A stretch of DNA of 7,944 bases from Armatimonadota bacterium (GTDB lineage Bacteria; Armatimonadota; SYMT01): contig JAJFMS010000115.1 in assembly GCA_020696885.1 (NCBI GenBank), positions 1 to 7,944 of the forward strand, read 5' to 3'. The notes below the pieces were generated by a model. It was not told where the DNA came from, did not search any database, and worked only from the letters and a program-made list of their open reading frames with translations. A program made the position numbers and the translations under genes. Shown piece by piece: positions 325 through 7,944 of the stretch. The number at the start of each line of letters is the position of its first letter. Within the stretch, counting starts at the first letter, position 1.

Positions 325-858
325 TCAGGGTGGAGTCCCCGGCCCGCCAAGCTCGTAGACTTCCAGCCAGAAGCTCCGCAAGAGCATCGGCTCATCCCGC
401 AATCGCTGCGGCGCCCCTGGGGTGATGGCGGCGGTCAGGGGAAGAAAGCCGTGGAGGACCAGCCAGCTCCGGGGGAGGTAGACCACTACCTCCACGATGT
501 GGCCGTCGTAGCTGCGCGTGTTGCACTGCCAGTGCTCGATCGGGCCACGGCTGCTCAGCCGCGTGTCGAGCCGTGAGCGCCACATCATCCGCGAGCGCTC
601 ACCACGCCAGGGTGCAAAGAACCGGAGGCCGTAGTGGTACTCGCCGTCCGGGTGACGCTCCGTCGCCAGCGAGGCAGGCTGGACGATCTTGCTTCCGGGC
701 ACTACCGGCCATGTCGGGGCGATGTGCCGGCGCAGCCCGCCGCGGTCCACGATCACCCAGGCGATCGCCAGCAACAGCAGTCCCGCCCCTCTTCCGGTGG
801 CGGCCCAGCGACGCAGGACCCATCTGCATCGTGCTAGCAGAACCGCGGAATAGCTCAC
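325..858 (-). CDS. Unrecognised single-pass membrane protein
   Basis: I do not recognise this 177-residue protein. Residues 1-21 are basic (RCRWVLRRW), and 22-39 form one hydrophobic segment, giving an N-terminal membrane anchor with a soluble domain probably outside the cytoplasm. The soluble part is rich in Trp, Arg and Tyr (FAPWRGER, RMMWRSRLDTR, IEHWQC) with a single Cys near 112, and a further hydrophobic stretch at about 130-146. No catalytic motif is evident. The start is GTG at 858, with GAGGG only 3 nt upstream, so translation start is uncertain; a TGA blocks extension. It follows the VKOR gene by 69 nt across a hairpin, same strand, so it may belong to the operon or be the first gene of the next one. 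The absence of stops and a plausible protein composition support it as real, with moderate certainty. Confidence 0.6.
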   Translation of the reverse strand: MSYSAVLLARCRWVLRRWAATGRGAGLLLLAIAWVIVDRGGLRRHIAPTWPVVPGSKIVQPASLATERHPDGEYHYGLRFFAPWRGERSRMMWRSRLDTRLSSRGPIEHWQCNTRSYDGHIVEVVVYLPRSWLVLHGFLPLTAAITPGAPQRLRDEPMLLRSFWLEVYELGGPGTPP

Positions 859-927: not shown

Positions 928-1752
928 TTAGGGGAGTCGGATGGCTGTAGTCGGCAGCGCCGCCGAGGTGGCGCCACAGGCTATTCGCACCGCCTGGCGC
1001 AGCCCGGCCACGTCTTCGTACCCGATGAACAGGCTGTTCCGGTTCCCCAGCACCACCGTGGTCGGGGTCGCCAGGCCCTTCCAGGCTCGCCGCTCCTCGA
1101 TGGTGACCTGGCCCGGGAACTCCTTGCCCAGCGCGGCGAGCACCTGCTGCTTGAACTCCGAGCACACGTGGCACGTGGGCCGCACGTACACCACGAGCAC
1201 GGCCTGGCCCCGCGGCACCGCCCGCTTCTCCTCGAAGACGGTGTACGCCGCGATCTTGCCCTGGCGGAGGAAGTCGCTCTGGGAGCGTCCCCGCAGGAAG
1301 CGGGTGCCGCCGAACGTGACGGCCGCCATCAGCGGCACCACGATCATCGCCCGCCGGAGGTTGGCACGGTCACCCGCCAGCAGCGCCCCAAACGCCACGA
1401 GCGCGCCGGCGGCGGTAACGAGGCAGGCGGGACAAAGGATCCGGTTCTTCAGCAGGAGCCCCAGGAGCATCACGTGCACCCCCGTGGCTGCCAGCACCCC
1501 GGAGGCGAGCAGCCAGGGCACCCGCGCCTCCCCGAGCCGCTCCTTGTTGCGGATCGCCCAGATGCCGCCAGCAACGAGCAGGAGCAGGTAAAAGCCGGTC
1601 CCCACCGCCGCGAGGTTCAGGTCTCCCGCCAGGCTGGCGGAGCGCAGGCAGGCGCTGCACGCTTCCGTCCCGGCGAGCGCCCAGAGCGACGCGCCCAGCG
1701 CCACCGCCATTCCGCCGAACAGGAGCCAGAGGCTCCGTTTGGGACTGTTCAT
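928..1752 (-). CDS. VKOR-like / thioredoxin-fold fusion protein (disulfide bond formation)
   Basis: Inner-membrane protein of 274 residues, predicted to make disulfides outside the cytoplasm using quinone as oxidant. Membrane helices lie near 9-28, 47-67, 80-101, 109-127 and 134-150. The VKOR part has the loop pair C32-S-A-C35 just after helix 1 and the active-site pair C107-P-A-C110 at the start of helix 4, the usual VKOR arrangement. The C-terminal part (about 165-274) is thioredoxin-like, with C194-H-V-C197 after a beta strand and a cis-Pro loop ATPT at Pro230; C259 is unpaired. Such VKOR-Trx fusions replace the DsbB/DsbA pair in some bacteria. Its ATG overlaps the stop of the glycosyltransferase gene by ATGA, implying translational coupling. 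In this operon the likely client is the Cys pair in each lasso core; that link is inferred. A reductase or isomerase role is an alternative. Confidence 0.87.
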   Translation of the reverse strand: MNSPKRSLWLLFGGMAVALGASLWALAGTEACSACLRSASLAGDLNLAAVGTGFYLLLLVAGGIWAIRNKERLGEARVPWLLASGVLAATGVHVMLLGLLLKNRILCPACLVTAAGALVAFGALLAGDRANLRRAMIVVPLMAAVTFGGTRFLRGRSQSDFLRQGKIAAYTVFEEKRAVPRGQAVLVVYVRPTCHVCSEFKQQVLAALGKEFPGQVTIEERRAWKGLATPTTVVLGNRNSLFIGYEDVAGLRQAVRIACGATSAALPTTAIRLP

Positions 1753-3557
1753 GTACGTGCCTCATCAACGCGAACCTGCGACCAGCACCAGGTGCGCCAC
1801 ATCATTCGGAACGCGGCTTCCAGTTCGCCGGTAAAGCCGGCGCCGTCACAGAGAGGGGACTGCGCCACCTGCTCGCGGAGCGTGGCGCGCAGCTCGCGCA
1901 GCCGGGGGAGGTCGCCGGCCAGCGCCACCGCCTTGTCGAAGTAGGCCTCGCGGGTGGGGACAATGAAGTCGGTCAGCCCCACCGCGGTGAGGTGGCTGAC
2001 TCCCATCCGGCTCACGAAGCGATCTCCCTCCAGGGTGATGGCGGGCACTCCCATCCACAGCCCATCCACCGTGGTGGTGCCGCCGGTATAGGGAAACGGA
2101 TCCAGCGCGATGTCCACGCCGCCGTACGCCGCCAGGTACTCCACGTGCGGCGACTTCCCGAGGAACGTCAGACGGTCCGCGGTGATGCCGCCCTCGGCGA
2201 ACCACCGGGTGTAGCGCTCCCGGACGCGGGACGCCGCCAGCGGGCTGCTTTTCAGCACCATCCGGGAGCCCGGCACCGCGCGGAGGATCCGGGACCACAA
2301 CGCCACGACCTCTGCGGACACCTTGGGGAGATTGTTGAAGCAGCCGAACGTGATCTGCCCCGAGGCGTCCGCCGGGAGCGGCGCGACCTCCGGGGCTCCT
2401 TCGGGCGGGGTATAGCAGAGGTAGCAGCGCGGCAGCCGGGCGATGCTCTCCACGTACCACCGATCTGCGTCCGGCGGGCACACCCGCTCATCGGCAATGA
2501 CGTAGTCGATGGCGCGGATGCCGGTGGTGTCGAAGTACCCCAGCCACATCGCCTGCACCGGCGCCGGCTTCCGTGCGGCGAGCAGAAGGCGGTTCCCGCC
2601 GGTATGGCCGGAAAGGTCGACGAGGAGGTCGATCCCATCGCTCCGGACCAGCGCGGCCGCCTCGGCGTCGGTAGTACCCACCAGGGTCCGCCAGTGATCG
2701 GCGCGGGCCTGGAGGCGGGAGGTCATCTCGTCGATCCGCGTGCTGTTGGAATAGCAGAAGACCTCGACCTGGCTCTTGTCGTGGTTCAGCAGCACCGTCT
2801 CGAGGAAGTAGCCCACCGGGTGCCGGTGAAAGTCCGCCGAGACGTAGCCGATCCGGAGCCGCCGGTCCGGGTCCGGGGTATTGGCGTGCGCCTCGATGCC
2901 GGCTTCCAGCGGCCGCGCGTGCCGCTCACCCCAGCGCGCCGCCTCCACGAAGAGCTCCTCGCGCGTGCGCTCCGGCACGTAATGAGACGCAAAGAGCAGT
3001 CCGGAGTGGTGGTGCGGAGAGTCGGGGGCCAGTGCCCGGGCCTGGTCGAACGCGCCGATCGCCGCCTCCACGTCCGCCTGGGTCAGGAGCGCGACGCCGA
3101 GACTGTTGTGCGAAGTGGCGCGCTCCGGGCCAAGCAGTACGGCGCGGCGCAGCGCCGCTTCCGCCTCTTCAAACCGATCCAGGTCCAGCAGCGCGCCTCC
3201 CAGCAGGGCATGCGCTTTAGGGCAGTCCGGAACCAGGTCGAGGGCGCGCTGGAACGAGGCCCGCGCCTCCTCCGGCCGGTGGCGGGCCAGCAGCGTGGCC
3301 CCCAGGCTCCGGTGGAAGGCGGCATTGTCGGGCTGGTGGGCTAGTGCCTTCTGGATAAACGCAGCGCCGATGCCCGGTCGGCCGAGGGCGTGCATGATCC
3401 GCCCCAGGAGGTTCAGCGTCTCCGCGTGGGCGGGATCGGCTCGCAGGGCCGCGCGGCACAGGTGCTCCGCTTCCGGCAGACGCCCGCTTCGCCACTCTTT
3501 GCGGGCCGCGATGAACTGCGCGTCGACGTCGAGAACGGGATTGGTGGTGACCATCAT
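1749..3557 (-). CDS. TPR-containing O-GlcNAc transferase-like glycosyltransferase (GT41/SPINDLY family)
   Basis: Cytoplasmic glycosyltransferase of 602 residues, predicted to move a sugar from a nucleotide sugar (UDP-GlcNAc in the best-known family members) to Ser/Thr of a polypeptide. Residues about 14-185 form roughly five TPR repeats, which bind the acceptor in this family. The catalytic half (about 233-590) shows RIGYVSADFHRHPVGYF with His246 aligned to the conserved OGT His, DLSGHTGGNR (314-323), QAMWLGYFDTTG (335-346), FNNLPK with Lys412 matching the nucleotide-binding Lys, and LDPFPYTGGTTTVDGLW with GTTT 493-496 and D498. Tight placement between exporter and disulfide gene makes the lasso precursors, rich in Ser/Thr in the tail, the natural candidate acceptors; this is inference. 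It could instead modify another surface protein. ATG codons at 3557 and 3554 are both possible starts. The end overlaps the next start as ATGA. Confidence 0.9.
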   Translation of the reverse strand: MMVTTNPVLDVDAQFIAARKEWRSGRLPEAEHLCRAALRADPAHAETLNLLGRIMHALGRPGIGAAFIQKALAHQPDNAAFHRSLGATLLARHRPEEARASFQRALDLVPDCPKAHALLGGALLDLDRFEEAEAALRRAVLLGPERATSHNSLGVALLTQADVEAAIGAFDQARALAPDSPHHHSGLLFASHYVPERTREELFVEAARWGERHARPLEAGIEAHANTPDPDRRLRIGYVSADFHRHPVGYFLETVLLNHDKSQVEVFCYSNSTRIDEMTSRLQARADHWRTLVGTTDAEAAALVRSDGIDLLVDLSGHTGGNRLLLAARKPAPVQAMWLGYFDTTGIRAIDYVIADERVCPPDADRWYVESIARLPRCYLCYTPPEGAPEVAPLPADASGQITFGCFNNLPKVSAEVVALWSRILRAVPGSRMVLKSSPLAASRVRERYTRWFAEGGITADRLTFLGKSPHVEYLAAYGGVDIALDPFPYTGGTTTVDGLWMGVPAITLEGDRFVSRMGVSHLTAVGLTDFIVPTREAYFDKAVALAGDLPRLRELRATLREQVAQSPLCDGAGFTGELEAAFRMMWRTWCWSQVRVDEART

Positions 3558-3567
3558 GGCAAGCTCG

Positions 3568-5355
3568 TTAGCGGGCGGCGACCAGCTCGGGCACGTCGTC
3601 CCGCTCCAGCGGAAGATCCAGGGTTCGCTCCGGACCGAACTGCAGCTCGCACAGCTCCCGGTAGAGACCCGGCCGGTGGAGGAGCTCGGCGTGGGTCCCC
3701 TGCTGCACGATCTTGCCTTCGTCCAGCACGAGGATCCGGTCCGCCCTGCGGATGGTGGACAGGCGATGCGCGATGACGAACGTGGTCCGGCCGCGGGTCA
3801 GTTCGGTGAGGGCAGCCTGGAGGAGGTGCTCCGAGCGGGCGTCGAGGGCCGAGGTGGGCTCGTCGAGAACCAGGATGCGCGGGTTGCGGAGGAGCACCCG
3901 GGCAGCCGAGAGCCGCTGCTTTTGCCCTTCGGACAACTGCGCGCCGCGCTCCCCGGTCAGGGTGTCGAGCCCCTTCGGCATCCGCTCGATGAACTCCCAG
4001 GCATGGGCGGCGTGGGCCGCGGCGACGATCTCGGCCTCCGTGGCGCCCTCGCGGCCGAACGCGATGTTCTCGCGGATCGTGGCCGCGAACAGGAACGTGT
4101 CCTGGAACACGATGCCGATCTGCGAGCGGAGCCCGCGAAGGGTGAACTCACGCACGTCGGTCCCGTCCAGGAGCACCCGTCCGGAGTCAGGATCGTAGAA
4201 GCGGGCGATCAGCCCGGCGAGCGTGGTCTTTCCGGCGCCGCTCGGGCCCACCAGGGCCACCAGCTCCCCTGGCCGGGCCACCAGCGAGACGTCGTGCAAC
4301 ACCGGCTGTCCCTGGTGGTAGCTGAAGCTCACGCGGTCGAAGACCACCTCGCCCTGGCAGTCGGCCAGGTCTCGCGCTTCCGGTCGCTCCACCACGCGCG
4401 GATCCTCGTCCAGAAAGGCATACACCCGATCCGCGGAGGCCAGTGATTTCTGAATTCCGTTCACCAGCCCGAAGAGGCGGCCCAGGTGGACGTACAGGTA
4501 GCTGAACAGCGTGCGGATGGCGAAGAGCGCGCCGAGCGTAGTCTTGCCCTGCGCCACCAGGTAGCCTCCATAGCCCAGTACGGCGAGGGTGACCGCCATG
4601 GAGAACAGGCTTTGCCCGGCCTGGAAGCCGGCGTCCATGAAGGTAAGGCGCATCCGCAGCCGCACGGCCTGCTGCAGCGCCGCGACGAACCGCTCCCCCT
4701 GGGACTGCTCCTGGCCAAACGCGACCACTTCCCGCACACCCGCCAGGTTCTCCTGGAGCCGCTCCGTGAGCGCGGCCGCCTGCTCTTGAGCACGGCGCAT
4801 CGCCGGGCGCATCGGCCGGGTGACCACCAGCGCCAGGCCGGCGACGACGGCGGGAACGAACGCCACTACCAGCGCCAGGTGCAGGCTCAGGCCGAACATC
4901 AGGACACTGCTGGTGATCAGCACCACGATGGTGGAGATCGCGGTGGTGATGGTGCTTCCAAGCAGGCCGCCCAGCACCGGCGCGTCGTTCTGGAACAGCG
5001 CCATGATCTGGCCGCTGTGCTCGCGGTGGGAGAAGGCCAGCGATAACCGCTCGCTCTGGCGGAGCAGTCGATGCTGCAGGTTCAGCCAGATCTGCTCACC
5101 CAGGTAGGTGCTCAGCAGGCTGGAGGCGCTGCCGAGCAGCAGACTCAGGATCCAGAGCCCCGCATACTGCGCGCCGAGCAGCGGGAGACGGTCCAACCGA
5201 TGGGCCAGGATGGCGCCGTCGACTACCTGTTTCTCCACCAGAGGCAGCGCCAGCATCACCAGCGGAGAGACGATCGCCACAATCAGCAGCGGAATGCGAA
5301 TCGCAGGAAAGTTGAGACTATCGTGCAGCAGGCGGAGGTGTTTTCTCGCAGGCAT
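3568..5355 (-). CDS. Lasso peptide ABC exporter (fused membrane and ATPase domains)
   Basis: Half-transporter of 595 residues, normal length for this family, acting as a homodimer in the inner membrane. It is expected to export the mature lasso peptide and give self-immunity (the D protein of lasso clusters). Hydrophobic segments lie near 21-40, 62-83, 132-155, 158-178 and 248-280. The ATPase domain (about 335-575) has Walker A GPSGAGKTT (370-378), Q-loop Gln418, signature LSEGQ (474-478, a variant of LSGGQ), Walker B ILVLDEP (494-500), D-loop SALD (502-505) and switch His530. There is no N-terminal C39 peptidase domain, so it does not cut the leader; a separate B2-type protease must. The ATG at 5355 is directly preceded by an in-frame TAG, so no upstream start is possible, yet its ribosome site is weak. 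The next gene starts 10 nt after its TAA. Confidence 0.93.
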   Translation of the reverse strand: MPARKHLRLLHDSLNFPAIRIPLLIVAIVSPLVMLALPLVEKQVVDGAILAHRLDRLPLLGAQYAGLWILSLLLGSASSLLSTYLGEQIWLNLQHRLLRQSERLSLAFSHREHSGQIMALFQNDAPVLGGLLGSTITTAISTIVVLITSSVLMFGLSLHLALVVAFVPAVVAGLALVVTRPMRPAMRRAQEQAAALTERLQENLAGVREVVAFGQEQSQGERFVAALQQAVRLRMRLTFMDAGFQAGQSLFSMAVTLAVLGYGGYLVAQGKTTLGALFAIRTLFSYLYVHLGRLFGLVNGIQKSLASADRVYAFLDEDPRVVERPEARDLADCQGEVVFDRVSFSYHQGQPVLHDVSLVARPGELVALVGPSGAGKTTLAGLIARFYDPDSGRVLLDGTDVREFTLRGLRSQIGIVFQDTFLFAATIRENIAFGREGATEAEIVAAAHAAHAWEFIERMPKGLDTLTGERGAQLSEGQKQRLSAARVLLRNPRILVLDEPTSALDARSEHLLQAALTELTRGRTTFVIAHRLSTIRRADRILVLDEGKIVQQGTHAELLHRPGLYRELCELQFGPERTLDLPLERDDVPELVAAR

Positions 5356-5604: not shown

Positions 5605-5805
5605 TTAGCTTTGCGGCGCGTCGTCGTTGATGCAGGCGCGGCGGGTGATCGTCCGGCCATTTTCCACAAAGGTCGCGGTAGGGCAGTTATTGTTCACGAC
5701 GTTCAGGCTCGCGTTGAGGTCCGGCAGACTGCCCGCAGTGCCCAGGGTGAGCTCCGCGACCGGACCAAAAACGGTGAGCCCAGGCGTCGACCATGGGGTT
5801 TTCAC
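5605..5805 (-). CDS. Lasso peptide precursor, copy 1 (66 aa, near-neutral core)
   Basis: Second substrate peptide of the cluster. The leader is residues 1-21, with W5, P8, L10, G14 and T20 in the same spacing as in copy 2. The 45-residue core starts GTAGSLPD, giving Gly1 and Asp8 for an 8-residue macrolactam. Tail cysteines are at core 20 and 37, one residue closer together than in copy 2. Between them the tail carries E27, R30, R34 and R35, making this core roughly neutral where copy 2 is acidic. Core positions 1-25 are nearly the same in both copies (19 of 25 identical), while the inter-cysteine stretch has diverged. Start is GTG at 5805 with AAGAGGT eight nt upstream; no upstream ATG fits the leader. 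Copies share an identical 16-nt stretch (5692-5707 and 5998-6013), consistent with tandem duplication. The stop is TAA. Confidence 0.92.
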   Translation of the reverse strand: MKTPWSTPGLTVFGPVAELTLGTAGSLPDLNASLNVVNNNCPTATFVENGRTITRRACINDDAPQS

Positions 5806-5813
5806 TATTGGTT

Positions 5814-5820
5814 ACCTCTT
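5814..5820 (-). promoter_or_regulatory. Shine-Dalgarno of precursor copy 1 (GTG start)
   Basis: The minus strand reads AAGAGGT, then eight nt, then GTG. It is a weaker match than the AGGAGGTGA of copy 2 and is paired with a GTG start codon, so copy 1 is probably translated less. It decides the start at 5805. Confidence 0.7.
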
Positions 5821-5836
5821 GACTTGCCCTTTGAGC

Positions 5837-5868
5837 TCCGCTCTGGATGCGAGTGCATCCAGAGCGGA
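5837..5868 (-). repeat. Perfect 14-bp hairpin between the two precursor genes
   Basis: Arms TCCGCTCTGGATGC (5837-5850) and GCATCCAGAGCGGA (5855-5868) are exact reverse complements around a 4-nt loop. In the transcript it lies 42 nt after the stop of copy 2 and 31 nt before the start of copy 1. No run of U follows (GCTCAAAGG comes next), so it is not a standard intrinsic terminator. A second, 6-bp hairpin GAGGGG-ATG-CCCCTC lies beside it at 5878-5892. Likely roles are mRNA 3'-end protection, RNase processing or partial attenuation that sets the ratio of the two precursors; these roles are inferred. Confidence 0.85.
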
Positions 5869-5910
5869 ATGCGGGGCGAGGGGATGCCCCTCATTACTCA
5901 CGGGGCGTAA

Positions 5911-6108
5911 CTAGCTGACGGACTCGTCATTCACGCACGCGATCCGGGTCGCCACCTGACCGGCGCCGTTAATAAACGTTCCGGTCGGACAGTCGTCGTT
6001 CACGACGTTCAGGGAAGCATCCAGGTCCGGCAGAGTGCCGGCGCTTCCGAGCGTGATCTGCTCGACGCGGCCGTACTGAACGACCGAGGGGGTAGTCCAC
6101 ATCTTCAT
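5911..6108 (-). CDS. Lasso peptide precursor, copy 2 (65 aa, acidic core)
   Basis: This is a substrate peptide. The leader is residues 1-20 and contains W4, P7, V9, G13 and T19, fitting the lasso leader rule Y/W-x2-P-x-L/V-x3-G-x5-T with Thr at -2 from cleavage. The core is residues 21-65 (45 aa). It begins GSAGTLPD, so Gly1 and Asp8 can form an 8-residue ring; Asp8 is the only acidic residue at core positions 7-9. The tail has Cys20 and Cys38 (core numbering), free acids at 10, 18, 19, 41 and 42, and one Arg. I chose the ATG at 6108 because an exact AGGAGGTGA lies 7 nt upstream; an in-frame ATG at 6156 would add 16 residues that are absent from the paralogue and would run through that ribosome site. 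It is 59% or more identical to copy 1 over much of the core. Lasso assignment is by motif; cleavage and ring are inferred. Confidence 0.93.
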   Translation of the reverse strand: MKMWTTPSVVQYGRVEQITLGSAGTLPDLDASLNVVNDDCPTGTFINGAGQVATRIACVNDESVS

Positions 6109-6202: not shown

Positions 6203-7944
6203 TCAAGCGAACGAAAGACCCACGGAGCGATCGCGAGGTGCGATCGTCGTCGCGCTCCCCTGGCCGTGGTACGGGGTGGTAAGTCTCGGCCGGGGCAACT
6301 CCAGGGCCCGCAGCCAGGTCTCGAGCGCGGCCATCCGCATTACGAAGATCAGATCTTCGCCGCGTTCGCCCGCTCGCATTCGGGTGAGCCGGTCCCAGAA
6401 CGCTGCCGGATCCACGTAGCCTCGTTCCGCCACCCGAGAAGTCGCGCCGGGCCCGAAGGCCTCCTCGTAAACGTGCCAGTGGCGGCTCAGCTCGTCGTCG
6501 AACGCGGACGCGAAGTGGGTGGGCGCCGTCCGTTCTCGAATCACCTCCGGCAGGATGCCGTGCAGGCCGCGCCGGACGATCTGCTTACTGGCCGCGTACA
6601 GCTCGTTGCTGTGCGGATGGGGCTCGAATTTCTGCTCCTGGGGAACGGCCAGCAGAAACTCCTGGAGGCGCCGGTCTGCATAGGGGCGGCGCAGCTCCAC
6701 CGGCCAACCGTCCGCCCGGCGGGGCACCTCCGGGGGCGACAACTGGCGGTATTCTTGCTCGCGGCCCGGGCTGGCGAAGCGCTTCCGCCCCACCTCTTCC
6801 AGTGCCTGCTCGCGATAGCGCCGGGTGACGTCCTTCCCAAGCTCCAGCGGCATCCATTCGGGAAGACGGCTCTCCGGTCCATCATCGAAGTAGCGCCGGA
6901 TGGTCCGGCGGGCCGCGAAACCCTGGATCGCCGTCGGGAGGAGTGGCAGCAAACACATCTGCGTGGCCATTCCGGAGAGAGTCGAGTCGGGGAAGGTGCG
7001 GCGGAAACGCCGTAGGTAGCGGCGGAAGTCGCGGAAACGCCCCTGGCGAAGGAGGGAGTCGAAGACCCACCAGGAGCCGCGCACGCAGGCGTCCGCCACG
7101 TCCCCGGTAAGGAGCACCCGAACCCCGGCCCTGGCTGCCGACTGGAACAGGAGGTCGCTTTCACTGGTCCTGGCCAGGGGCGACGGTTGAAACCCGTCGG
7201 GAGCCAGGCGGAGCCAGCCGAAGAACTCCCCCTGCGGCCGGAAGAACTGCGCGGGAAATCCGTATTTCGCCTGGACGCTTTCGATCAGCGGGCGCTCGCC
7301 GCATTCCAGCCCATCGTAGTCCAGGCTGTAGCTGCGAAACCCGTGGTCCCGGGCTTTTCCTTCGCGGAACAGCTCCTGCGCCACGCACACGACGGACGAG
7401 GAGTCCAGCCCGCCGCTGAGCATCGCGCCCACGGGACCGGCGCTGCGCAGCCGGGACGAGACGGCCTGGGAGAACACGGCGCGGAAGTGCTCCGCGTACT
7501 CTTCGTTGCGGCGATACCGCAGCTCCCGCGGCGCCAGCTCCCAGTACTTCGCGAGGCGGCGGCCCCCCGCCTCGATTACCAGCACATGCGCCGGCGGCAG
7601 GGAATGGATCCCGTGGTAGAAGGTGGAGCCCCAATCCTTCTCGTTGCGCAGGAGATTCAACGGGGTCATGAAGCTCCGGAGGTGGTCTTCATCCGGGAGG
7701 ATCGGCGCGGAGGGGTCCTGAAAGAGCTGGTGGATCTCCGAGGCCGCGGCGAACACCCCGCCCGCATCCCGGTAGTAGAGCGGGCGCTCGCCGCTGGTGT
7801 CCCTGGCGCACACGAGCCGGTGCTGCCGGGGGTCCCAGAGCACGAACGCGAAGTCGCCGAGCAGCCGGCCGGGGGCCTTATCGCCCCACTTCTCGTACGC
7901 GAACAGCAGGATCTCGGCATCACAGGCGTCGGCGGGTAGCTCCG
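6203..7944 (-). CDS. Lasso peptide cyclase (asparagine synthetase B homologue), 5' end outside window
   Basis: Predicted to adenylate the side chain of core Asp8 and join it to the amino group of Gly1, the macrolactam-forming step of lasso maturation in the cytoplasm. The frame is open from 7942, so 579 residues are visible and roughly the first 70-80 are missing, including any N-terminal Cys of the glutaminase-like domain. Visible residues 1-90 match the end of the class II amidotransferase-like domain (DAEILL, GDFAFVLWD, ERPLYY). The synthetase domain follows, with the ATP-binding PP-loop SGGLDSS at visible 176-182, a C-terminal signature RRPYADRRLQEF near 418-429 and a Ser-Lys at 452-453. 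Where AsnB proteins usually have a G-GGDE-like loop, this one reads LLTGDVADACVRG (277-289), which is divergent. Taken alone it could be an ordinary asparagine synthetase; the two lasso precursors 94 nt downstream make cyclase much more likely. It ends with TGA at 6203. Confidence 0.9.
   Translation of the reverse strand, partial: ELPADACDAEILLFAYEKWGDKAPGRLLGDFAFVLWDPRQHRLVCARDTSGERPLYYRDAGGVFAAASEIHQLFQDPSAPILPDEDHLRSFMTPLNLLRNEKDWGSTFYHGIHSLPPAHVLVIEAGGRRLAKYWELAPRELRYRRNEEYAEHFRAVFSQAVSSRLRSAGPVGAMLSGGLDSSSVVCVAQELFREGKARDHGFRSYSLDYDGLECGERPLIESVQAKYGFPAQFFRPQGEFFGWLRLAPDGFQPSPLARTSESDLLFQSAARAGVRVLLTGDVADACVRGSWWVFDSLLRQGRFRDFRRYLRRFRRTFPDSTLSGMATQMCLLPLLPTAIQGFAARRTIRRYFDDGPESRLPEWMPLELGKDVTRRYREQALEEVGRKRFASPGREQEYRQLSPPEVPRRADGWPVELRRPYADRRLQEFLLAVPQEQKFEPHPHSNELYAASKQIVRRGLHGILPEVIRERTAPTHFASAFDDELSRHWHVYEEAFGPGATSRVAERGYVDPAAFWDRLTRMRAGERGEDLIFVMRMAALETWLRALELPRPRLTTPYHGQGSATTIAPRDRSVGLSFA

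What the first reader, a model, noticed from the sequence alone, without database searches (positions are those of the whole stretch)
5605..6108. Two lasso precursors with unusually long 45-residue cores and a conserved tail Cys pair
Seen: both peptides have a lasso-type leader ending T-L before Gly1, Asp8 as the only candidate ring acid, and Cys20 with Cys37/38 in the tail. Known: most characterised lasso peptides are about 15-26 residues; pandonodin (33 residues, tail disulfide) is the closest precedent I know. Inferred: an 8-residue ring threaded by, or attached to, a 37-residue tail closed into a disulfide loop of about 16-17 residues, which would give a second, interlocking or folded element.
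Basis: partly seen in the sequence, partly recalled or inferred. Interest (0 to 1): 0.85.

Follow-up and report, generated by a model that had tools for sequence, protein, structure and literature searches.

The report
Long lasso peptides with orphan sugar enzyme
Two tiny bacterial genes encode unusually long ring-and-tail "lasso" peptides whose tail is probably pinned into a hairpin by a sulfur bridge, and they sit beside a relative of a well-studied sugar-attaching enzyme with no known target, which suggests that such peptides may be the target.

Summary
Two lasso-type precursors (5911-6108 and 5605-5805, minus strand) have 45-residue cores with Gly1, Asp8 and a tail Cys pair (20/38, 20/37), between a lasso-type cyclase gene and an exporter gene. 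All 16 precursors compared, these two included, have Asp8 and exactly two core Cys, so this is a family, with its closest relatives mostly in Chloroflexota. Long two-Cys cores are also predicted in cyanobacteria, so length alone is not unique.

Beyond the finding: (1) in the long-loop members except T. terrenum's, the Cys pair sits symmetrically about a turn, and AlphaFold draws a beta-hairpin there in both members tried, at low confidence; (2) a GT41 (OGT/SPINDLY-type) gene directly follows the exporter in five clusters, each with a peptide whose Cys loop is 16-20 residues; (3) one of these is TtOGT of Thermobaculum terrenum (PDB 5djs), a solved enzyme for which its authors found neither activity nor substrate.

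Best reading: a class IV-like lasso peptide whose disulfide-stapled tail is glycosylated by GT41 before export. Macrolactam, threading, disulfide and sugar are all inferred. A VKOR-thioredoxin gene, a possible disulfide maker, was seen next to the cluster only in this window.

The parts
6203..7944 (-). Lasso-type macrolactam cyclase (C, asparagine-synthetase fold), N-terminus cut off by the contig end
   Evidence: Pfam Asn_synthase 118.8 bits and GATase_7 63.7 bits; best NCBIfam hit lass_lactam_cya 274.8 bits, below its 525 cut-off
5911..6108 (-). Precursor A1 (65 aa): leader 6049-6108, core 5914-6048; Cys20 codon 5989-5991, Cys38 codon 5935-5937
   Evidence: no Pfam or NCBIfam family
5605..5805 (-). 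Precursor A2 (66 aa, GTG start): leader 5743-5805, core 5608-5742; Cys20 codon 5683-5685, Cys37 codon 5632-5634; N28-G29 at the midpoint
   Evidence: NCBIfam lasso_cyano 21 bits, below its cut-off of 33
5837..5868 (.). Perfect inverted repeat (14-nt arms) between A1 and A2; possible mRNA stem
3568..5355 (-). ABC exporter (D)
   Evidence: Pfam ABC_membrane and ABC_tran; 49-61% identical exporters in the related clusters
1749..3557 (-). TPR-GT41 glycosyltransferase (OGT/SPINDLY type); starts 10 bases after the D stop
   Evidence: Glyco_transf_41 195.8 bits; best PDB match 5djs = TtOGT, then SPINDLY; spacing
928..1752 (-). VKOR-thioredoxin-like fusion, possible disulfide-forming enzyme; overlaps the GT41 stop by 4 bases
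   Evidence: Pfam VKOR 23.1 bits, below its cut-off of 27.5; CSAC, CPAC, CHVC motifs; overlap; no NCBIfam or convincing PDB match
325..858 (-). Unknown 177-aa ORF at the end of the gene row; membership uncertain
   Evidence: no family

Best explanation
The genes make two class IV-like lasso peptides. After leader removal the cyclase joins Gly1 to Asp8, giving an 8-residue ring with a 37-residue remainder. Residues 20-37/38 form a beta-hairpin closed at its base by the Cys20-Cys37/38 disulfide, which would also stop the tail from slipping back through the ring. Before export, the cytoplasmic GT41 enzyme attaches a sugar to Ser/Thr of that segment (first candidate: the Thr two residues after the first Cys). 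The exporter secretes the peptide, and the VKOR-thioredoxin protein or ambient oxidation closes the disulfide. Shown: genes, order, conservation of Asp8 and the Cys pair, recurrence of GT41 after D. Inferred: macrolactam, threading, hairpin, disulfide, sugar, timing.
For: Leader with T at -2 and Gly1. 16 of 16 precursors with Asp8 and exactly two core Cys. Related loci carry RRE-B1 (9 of 9), kinase-like K (9 of 9), B2 (7 of 9) by tblastn, and an exporter in all eight loci that are not cut off before it. Turn residues at the exact Cys midpoint: no shuffle of 100,000 reached the observed value for 7 representatives, p 7e-5 for 5. AlphaFold hairpins in the same register in A2 and L098. GT41 within 25 bases of D in 5 clusters; of 400 Chloroflexota genomes 8 have GT41, 4 of these in such clusters (p 4.5e-6; 1.8e-4 if the truncated G302 cyclase is left out). 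GT41 goes with Cys loops of 16-20, its absence with 4-10 (5 of 5 against 0 of 4 clusters, Fisher 0.008). Catalytic Lys conserved.
Against: Model confidence is low (mean pLDDT 56 and 52). The turn and loop tests were devised after seeing the sequences, and rows are related. Lasso-linked GT41s are not a single clade and 4 of 8 GT41 genomes show no such cluster in the stretches fetched. T. terrenum's GT41 cluster also has a short-loop peptide, and its long-loop peptide does not look like a hairpin. An OGT-inhibitor precursor stopped T. terrenum growth (PMC4683255, Discussion), which fits a lasso-only role poorly. VKOR is not beside the relatives' clusters. Curated NCBIfam cut-offs are not reached by cyclase or precursors. 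B1, B2 and K are not in the window.
Confidence: 0.52

Rival explanations
1. A plain class IV lasso peptide: ring and tail disulfide as above, but GT41 modifies something else (a cell protein or a surface glycan) and its place after D is hitch-hiking.
For: GT41s in G068, G199, G246 and G274 stand without such a cluster in the stretches fetched; lasso-linked GT41s do not form one clade; the OGT-inhibitor precursor affected growth (PMC4683255).
Against: GT41 directly follows D in 5 clusters whose GT41s are well diverged (42-52% identical to the window's); in the 8 genomes searched it occurs only inside these clusters (3 of 8).
Confidence: 0.27
2. The ring closes but the tail is not threaded (branched cyclic peptide with a disulfide hairpin).
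For: No tool here tests threading.
Against: Cyclase, leader and exporter are of lasso type; unthreaded products are not the usual outcome of these enzymes (general knowledge).
Confidence: 0.11
3. The tail is trimmed before Cys20, so that the mature product is an ordinary short lasso peptide and the Cys segment is a discarded extension.
For: Trimming of lasso tails by carboxypeptidases in expression hosts is described (PMC13352647, passage).
Against: The two Cys are kept in 16 of 16 precursors, including clusters with one precursor.
Confidence: 0.05
4. The Cys residues form intermolecular bridges (A1-A2 heterodimer) or bind metal instead of closing a tail loop.
For: Two precursors sit together here, in L001 and in L097.
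Against: L002, L003, L098, L100 and L117 each showed one precursor and keep the pair; the Cys spacing is symmetrical about a turn in most long-loop members.
Confidence: 0.05

Closest known systems
Pandonodin and other class IV lasso peptides (LP2006, felipeptins)
   Same: One disulfide within the tail (PMC13352647 and PMC9266682, passages)
   Different: Pandonodin is 33 aa with an 18-aa tail; here 45 aa predicted, with a hairpin-like Cys loop and a GT41 gene. No GT41 is mentioned in the passages read; no extra genes beyond A-D in class IV clusters is stated there, felipeptin's oxidoreductase apart
TtOGT of Thermobaculum terrenum (PDB 5djs)
   Same: The window GT41's best PDB match; the same place directly after a lasso exporter
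   Different: TtOGT was proposed for protein O-GlcNAc; no substrate was found (PMC4683255). Its lasso setting was not mentioned in the parts read
SPINDLY (plant O-fucosyltransferase)
   Same: Second-best PDB match of the window GT41; Tyr744 and Lys665 equivalents present (numbering)
   Different: Far fewer TPRs; bacterial; substrate and sugar donor unknown
Paeninodin / pseudomycoidin lasso clusters
   Same: HPr-kinase-like gene in 9 of 9 relatives with a visible upstream side; an NTP_transf_5 gene in L099, the enzyme type described for pseudomycoidin (PMC8498205, passages)
   Different: Those peptides are shorter and without the Cys pair (recalled); the kinase is off the window
Predicted cyanobacterial lasso precursors (L011, L019, L029, L033, L036, L058)
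   Same: Cores of 41-50 residues with two Cys towards the C-terminus
   Different: Cyclases about 30% identical to the window's; shorter Cys spacing; only one weak GT41-like hit among L005-L079 (L020)

Membership tests
Lasso peptides | Leader with Thr at -2 and a core starting Gly with Asp/Glu at 7-9 | tested here: met
   Sequence; the Thr rule seen in the abstract of PMC10368454 (listing)
Lasso peptides | Lasso cyclase, leader peptidase/RRE in the cluster | tested here: inconclusive
   Cyclase-like gene in the window, below the NCBIfam cut-off of 525 (274.8 bits; truncated); B1/B2 absent from the window but B1 in 9 of 9 and B2 in 7 of 9 related loci
Lasso peptides | Gly1-Asp8 macrolactam and threaded tail | not testable with these tools
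   Needs MS and NMR
Curated lasso precursor families (NCBIfam) | Score over the curated cut-off | tested here: not met
   A2: lasso_cyano 21 of 33, rhodolasso 13.2 of 30, lasso_leader_L3 13.2 of 19; A1: none
Class IV lasso peptides | Two Cys in the tail | tested here: met
   16 of 16 precursors
Class IV lasso peptides | Disulfide formed between them | not testable with these tools
   Inferred
GT41 (OGT/SPINDLY) | GT41 domain with TPRs and catalytic Lys | tested here: met
   Glyco_transf_41 195.8 bits against 25; Lys412 aligns with SPINDLY Lys665 and TtOGT Lys341
GT41 (OGT/SPINDLY) | Transfers sugar to Ser/Thr of a peptide | not testable with these tools
   Donor also open: Tyr at the SPINDLY fucose-gate position in the window and TtOGT, Phe in L098
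VKOR disulfide enzymes | VKOR domain over the curated cut-off plus CxxC motifs | tested here: inconclusive
   23.1 of 27.5 bits; CSAC, CPAC, CHVC present
Paeninodin-type phosphorylated lasso peptides | HPr-kinase homologue and C-terminal Ser | tested here: inconclusive
   Both window cores end in Ser; the kinase would lie off the contig; it is in 9 of 9 relatives with Pfam scores under the cut-off, but L003, L097 and L100 cores do not end in Ser

The most novel reading that the evidence does not exclude
GT41 (OGT/SPINDLY-type) enzymes serve as dedicated glycosyltransferases of lasso peptides in Chloroflexota. The missing substrate of TtOGT, from the first bacterium said to hold the parts of an O-GlcNAc system, would then be the 44-residue lasso core encoded beside it, and the products would be glycosylated lasso peptides with a disulfide-closed tail domain, a hairpin in the window's group.
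Probability: 0.48. Interest if true: 0.88.

Novelty: new variant of a known kind. Interest (0 to 1): 0.73.

Why it matters
If right, lasso peptides would reach about 45 residues with a folded tail domain, beyond the 33-residue pandonodin, and an OGT-type enzyme would have a small exported peptide as substrate. TtOGT has had a crystal structure since 2015 but no detected activity or target; its gene neighbourhood names a candidate, so the question becomes one co-expression experiment. A VKOR-type enzyme in the gene row would also offer one answer to how lasso disulfides form, which a 2026 review calls unknown (PMC13352647, passage).

Tried and rejected
Precursor search in genome contigs with alignment A1 (both window precursors and P0002): 34 pattern hits, none confirmed. 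Plasmids: no match with the A1 precursor; with the cyclase only relatives under 60% identity. Rfam: no family at the gathering threshold. Promoter scan 0; two terminator-like sites against 0.9 expected. Foldseek with the A2 model: nothing at E 0.001 or better. VKOR as a general part of the system: not supported; VKOR is in 7 of 8 genomes but not on a contig that holds the clusters, and the window protein has no tblastn match in ten related loci. Single origin of lasso-linked GT41: not supported. N-glycosylation at NxS/T as the general rule: not supported, A1 and P0005 have no sequon. "A long two-Cys core is unique": rejected.

Full report
CHECK. The window's minus strand reads cyclase C (6203-7944, cut by the contig end), precursor A1 (5911-6108), precursor A2 (5605-5805), ABC exporter D (3568-5355), a TPR-GT41 protein (1749-3557), a VKOR-thioredoxin-like fusion (928-1752) and an unknown 177-aa ORF (325-858). 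They are 55% identical, dN 0.38 and dS 1.36 by NG86. GT41 starts 10 bases after D and the VKOR-type gene overlaps the GT41 stop by 4 bases.

RELATIVES. A search of 5.8 billion proteins found the window protein and P0002; the three-sequence profile added P0003-P0005, with the close words of the query limiting reach. The cyclase has 748 relatives at E 1e-30 or better, 120 listed; of the 8 listed rows with an organism name, 7 are Chloroflexi/Chloroflexota groups, T. terrenum and Thermomicrobiales included, and 1 is Actinomycetota. The window is therefore probably from Chloroflexota; no genome is held for it.

LOCI. A genome-contig scan with 41 cyclases kept the best 80 of a capped list, 79 loci; L001-L004 are of the clade at 48-63% identity, the rest 28-35%. 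Genome searches gave L096-L100; searches of the classes of G002 (29 genomes), G303 (158), G001 (294, drawn from more), G004 (3) and G302 (41) gave no further clade cyclase at the limits used. L117 came through GT41. L004 and L096 end before the precursor. From the other eight loci I read ten precursors. With the window's two and P0002-P0005 that is 16 cores of 29-45 residues, all with Asp8 and exactly two Cys. They were picked by leader pattern and by similarity to the window's precursors, which does not demand Cys except in one of the patterns. RRE-B1 was found in 9 of 9 loci with a visible upstream side, a kinase-like gene in 9 of 9, B2 in 7 of 9, not in L003 or L098. The strict P-loop pattern is in 6 of 8 kinase-like proteins and the Hpr_kinase_C hits are below Pfam's cut-off.

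CONTROL ON LENGTH. A loose leader pattern over L005-L079 gave 87 rows, many of them noise. Among plausible ones, cyanobacterial precursors in L011, L019, L029, L033, L036 and L058 have cores of 41-50 residues with two Cys. The combination is thus not unique. Among characterised peptides the longest tail is pandonodin's, 18 of 33 residues (PMC13352647, passages).

HAIRPIN. The midpoint between the two Cys is N28-G29 in A2 and P0002-P0004, N29-G30 in L098, D27-G28 in L117, G-T in P0005, T-S within NTSG in L003 and GAG in A1. Shuffling loop residues, no shuffle of 100,000 reached the mean midpoint turn propensity of seven representatives (p about 1e-5); for five more divergent ones p was 7e-5. 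The test was devised after seeing the sequences and the rows are related. AlphaFold on 15 of the 16 precursors (L099 left out) put strands at core 23-27 and 30-34 of A2; on nine precursors it put strands at core 19-28 and 31-40 of L098, with the Cys at both ends. Mean pLDDT is 56 and 52; in the hairpin blocks about 61-65 and 56-57. T. terrenum's long-loop peptide is Ser/Gly/Pro-rich and does not look like a hairpin.

GT41. The window GT41 matches TtOGT (5djs) best, then SPINDLY, then human OGT. Locus L097 encodes TtOGT itself: the 529-residue alignment shows one visible difference, K to M, which fits the crystallised K341M protein (PMC4683255, passage). GT41 follows D in five clusters: window, L003, L097, L098, L117, at 10, 18, 13, 25 and -19 bases. 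In the eight genomes behind L001-L004 and L096-L100, GT41 was found in three, each time only inside the lasso cluster. Of 400 Chloroflexota genomes, 8 have GT41; 7 have the cyclase at the strict limit, 8 with G302's truncated gene. Four have both, side by side: p 4.5e-6, or 1.8e-4 for 3 shared with G302 left out. The other four (G068, G199, G246, G274) showed no relative of C, D or the precursors in the 5-19 kb stretches fetched. Clusters with GT41 have a peptide with 16-20 residues between the Cys; those with D but no GT41 (L001, L002, L099, L100) have 4-10. Genome G002 has one cluster of each sort. T. terrenum's cluster has a peptide of each sort, which weakens the rule. A Thr two residues after the first Cys is in 9 of 10 long-loop cores, not T. 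terrenum's (in one search its pattern match is at the second Cys). It is also in L001, which has no GT41. The Lys and His of the active site are conserved. The Tyr of SPINDLY's fucose gate is present in the window enzyme and in TtOGT but is Phe in L098, so the sugar donor is open. A tree of 15 GT41 domains does not hold the five together (1% of bootstrap trees).

IN PRINT. The TtOGT authors report no in vitro activity and no O-GlcNAc proteins in T. terrenum and say no similar proteins were found in published Chloroflexi genomes; an inhibitor precursor stopped growth, which fits a lasso-only role poorly (PMC4683255: abstract, passages and the Discussion). In that text 'operon', 'gene cluster' and 'asparagine synth' occur 0 times. 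Searches of the held library for lasso peptide with O-GlcNAc transferase (one unrelated paper), with Thermobaculum (none) and for GT41, SPINDLY, Tter_2822 with lasso or RiPP (top 20 of 433 listed) showed no paper making the link. Searches on lasso with Chloroflexi, Chloroflexota and long-tail terms gave listings only, not read. The library lacks most subscription papers, and a 2025 paper on lasso glycosylation cited in PMC13352647 was not held, so an earlier report cannot be excluded.

VKOR. The fusion scores below Pfam's VKOR cut-off but has CSAC, CPAC and CHVC motifs. VKOR is in 7 of 8 related genomes, never on the clusters' contigs. It is a lead for disulfide formation in this organism only.

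MECHANISM. B1/B2, expected off the contig end, remove the leader at L-G; C closes Gly1 to Asp8; a kinase may phosphorylate the terminal Ser; GT41 glycosylates the tail in the cytoplasm; D exports; the disulfide closes outside. Only gene content and conservation are shown. What the peptide does is open; antibacterial activity would be a guess. Compared with the draft, the odds were lowered slightly (0.55 as first noted to 0.52 for the best reading, 0.50 to 0.48 for the novel case) because the growth effect of the OGT-inhibitor precursor is now weighed in.

Noticed in passing
L097:4362-5951 (T. terrenum, minus strand): TtOGT (PDB 5djs) is encoded 13 bases after a lasso exporter, in a cluster with two cyclases and two precursors; its published substrate search does not mention this in the parts read.
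   Followed up: yes
L097:8289-9614 (minus strand): A TPR-methyltransferase gene lies between a lasso cyclase and the long-loop precursor in T. terrenum, so a second TPR-fused modifying enzyme may act on the peptide.
   Followed up: no
L099:5949-7067 (minus strand): An NTP_transf_5 gene follows the exporter where GT41 stands in other clusters; [quoted passage not shown]
   Followed up: no
L122:1806-15345: Six large TPR-GT41 ORFs in a row, some overlapping, near an F-type ATP-synthase-like ORF (by its N-terminus, recalled), with no lasso gene seen.
   Followed up: no
L011, L019, L029, L033, L036, L058: Cyanobacterial lasso-type precursors with 41-50-residue cores and a C-terminal Cys pair, several in tandem.
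   Followed up: partly
window 5837-5868: Perfect 14-nt-arm inverted repeat between the two precursor genes.
   Followed up: no
G160:C2:1021682-1023652: The search reported one TGA inside the second T. terrenum cyclase match; its ORF is nevertheless long (680 aa).
   Followed up: no
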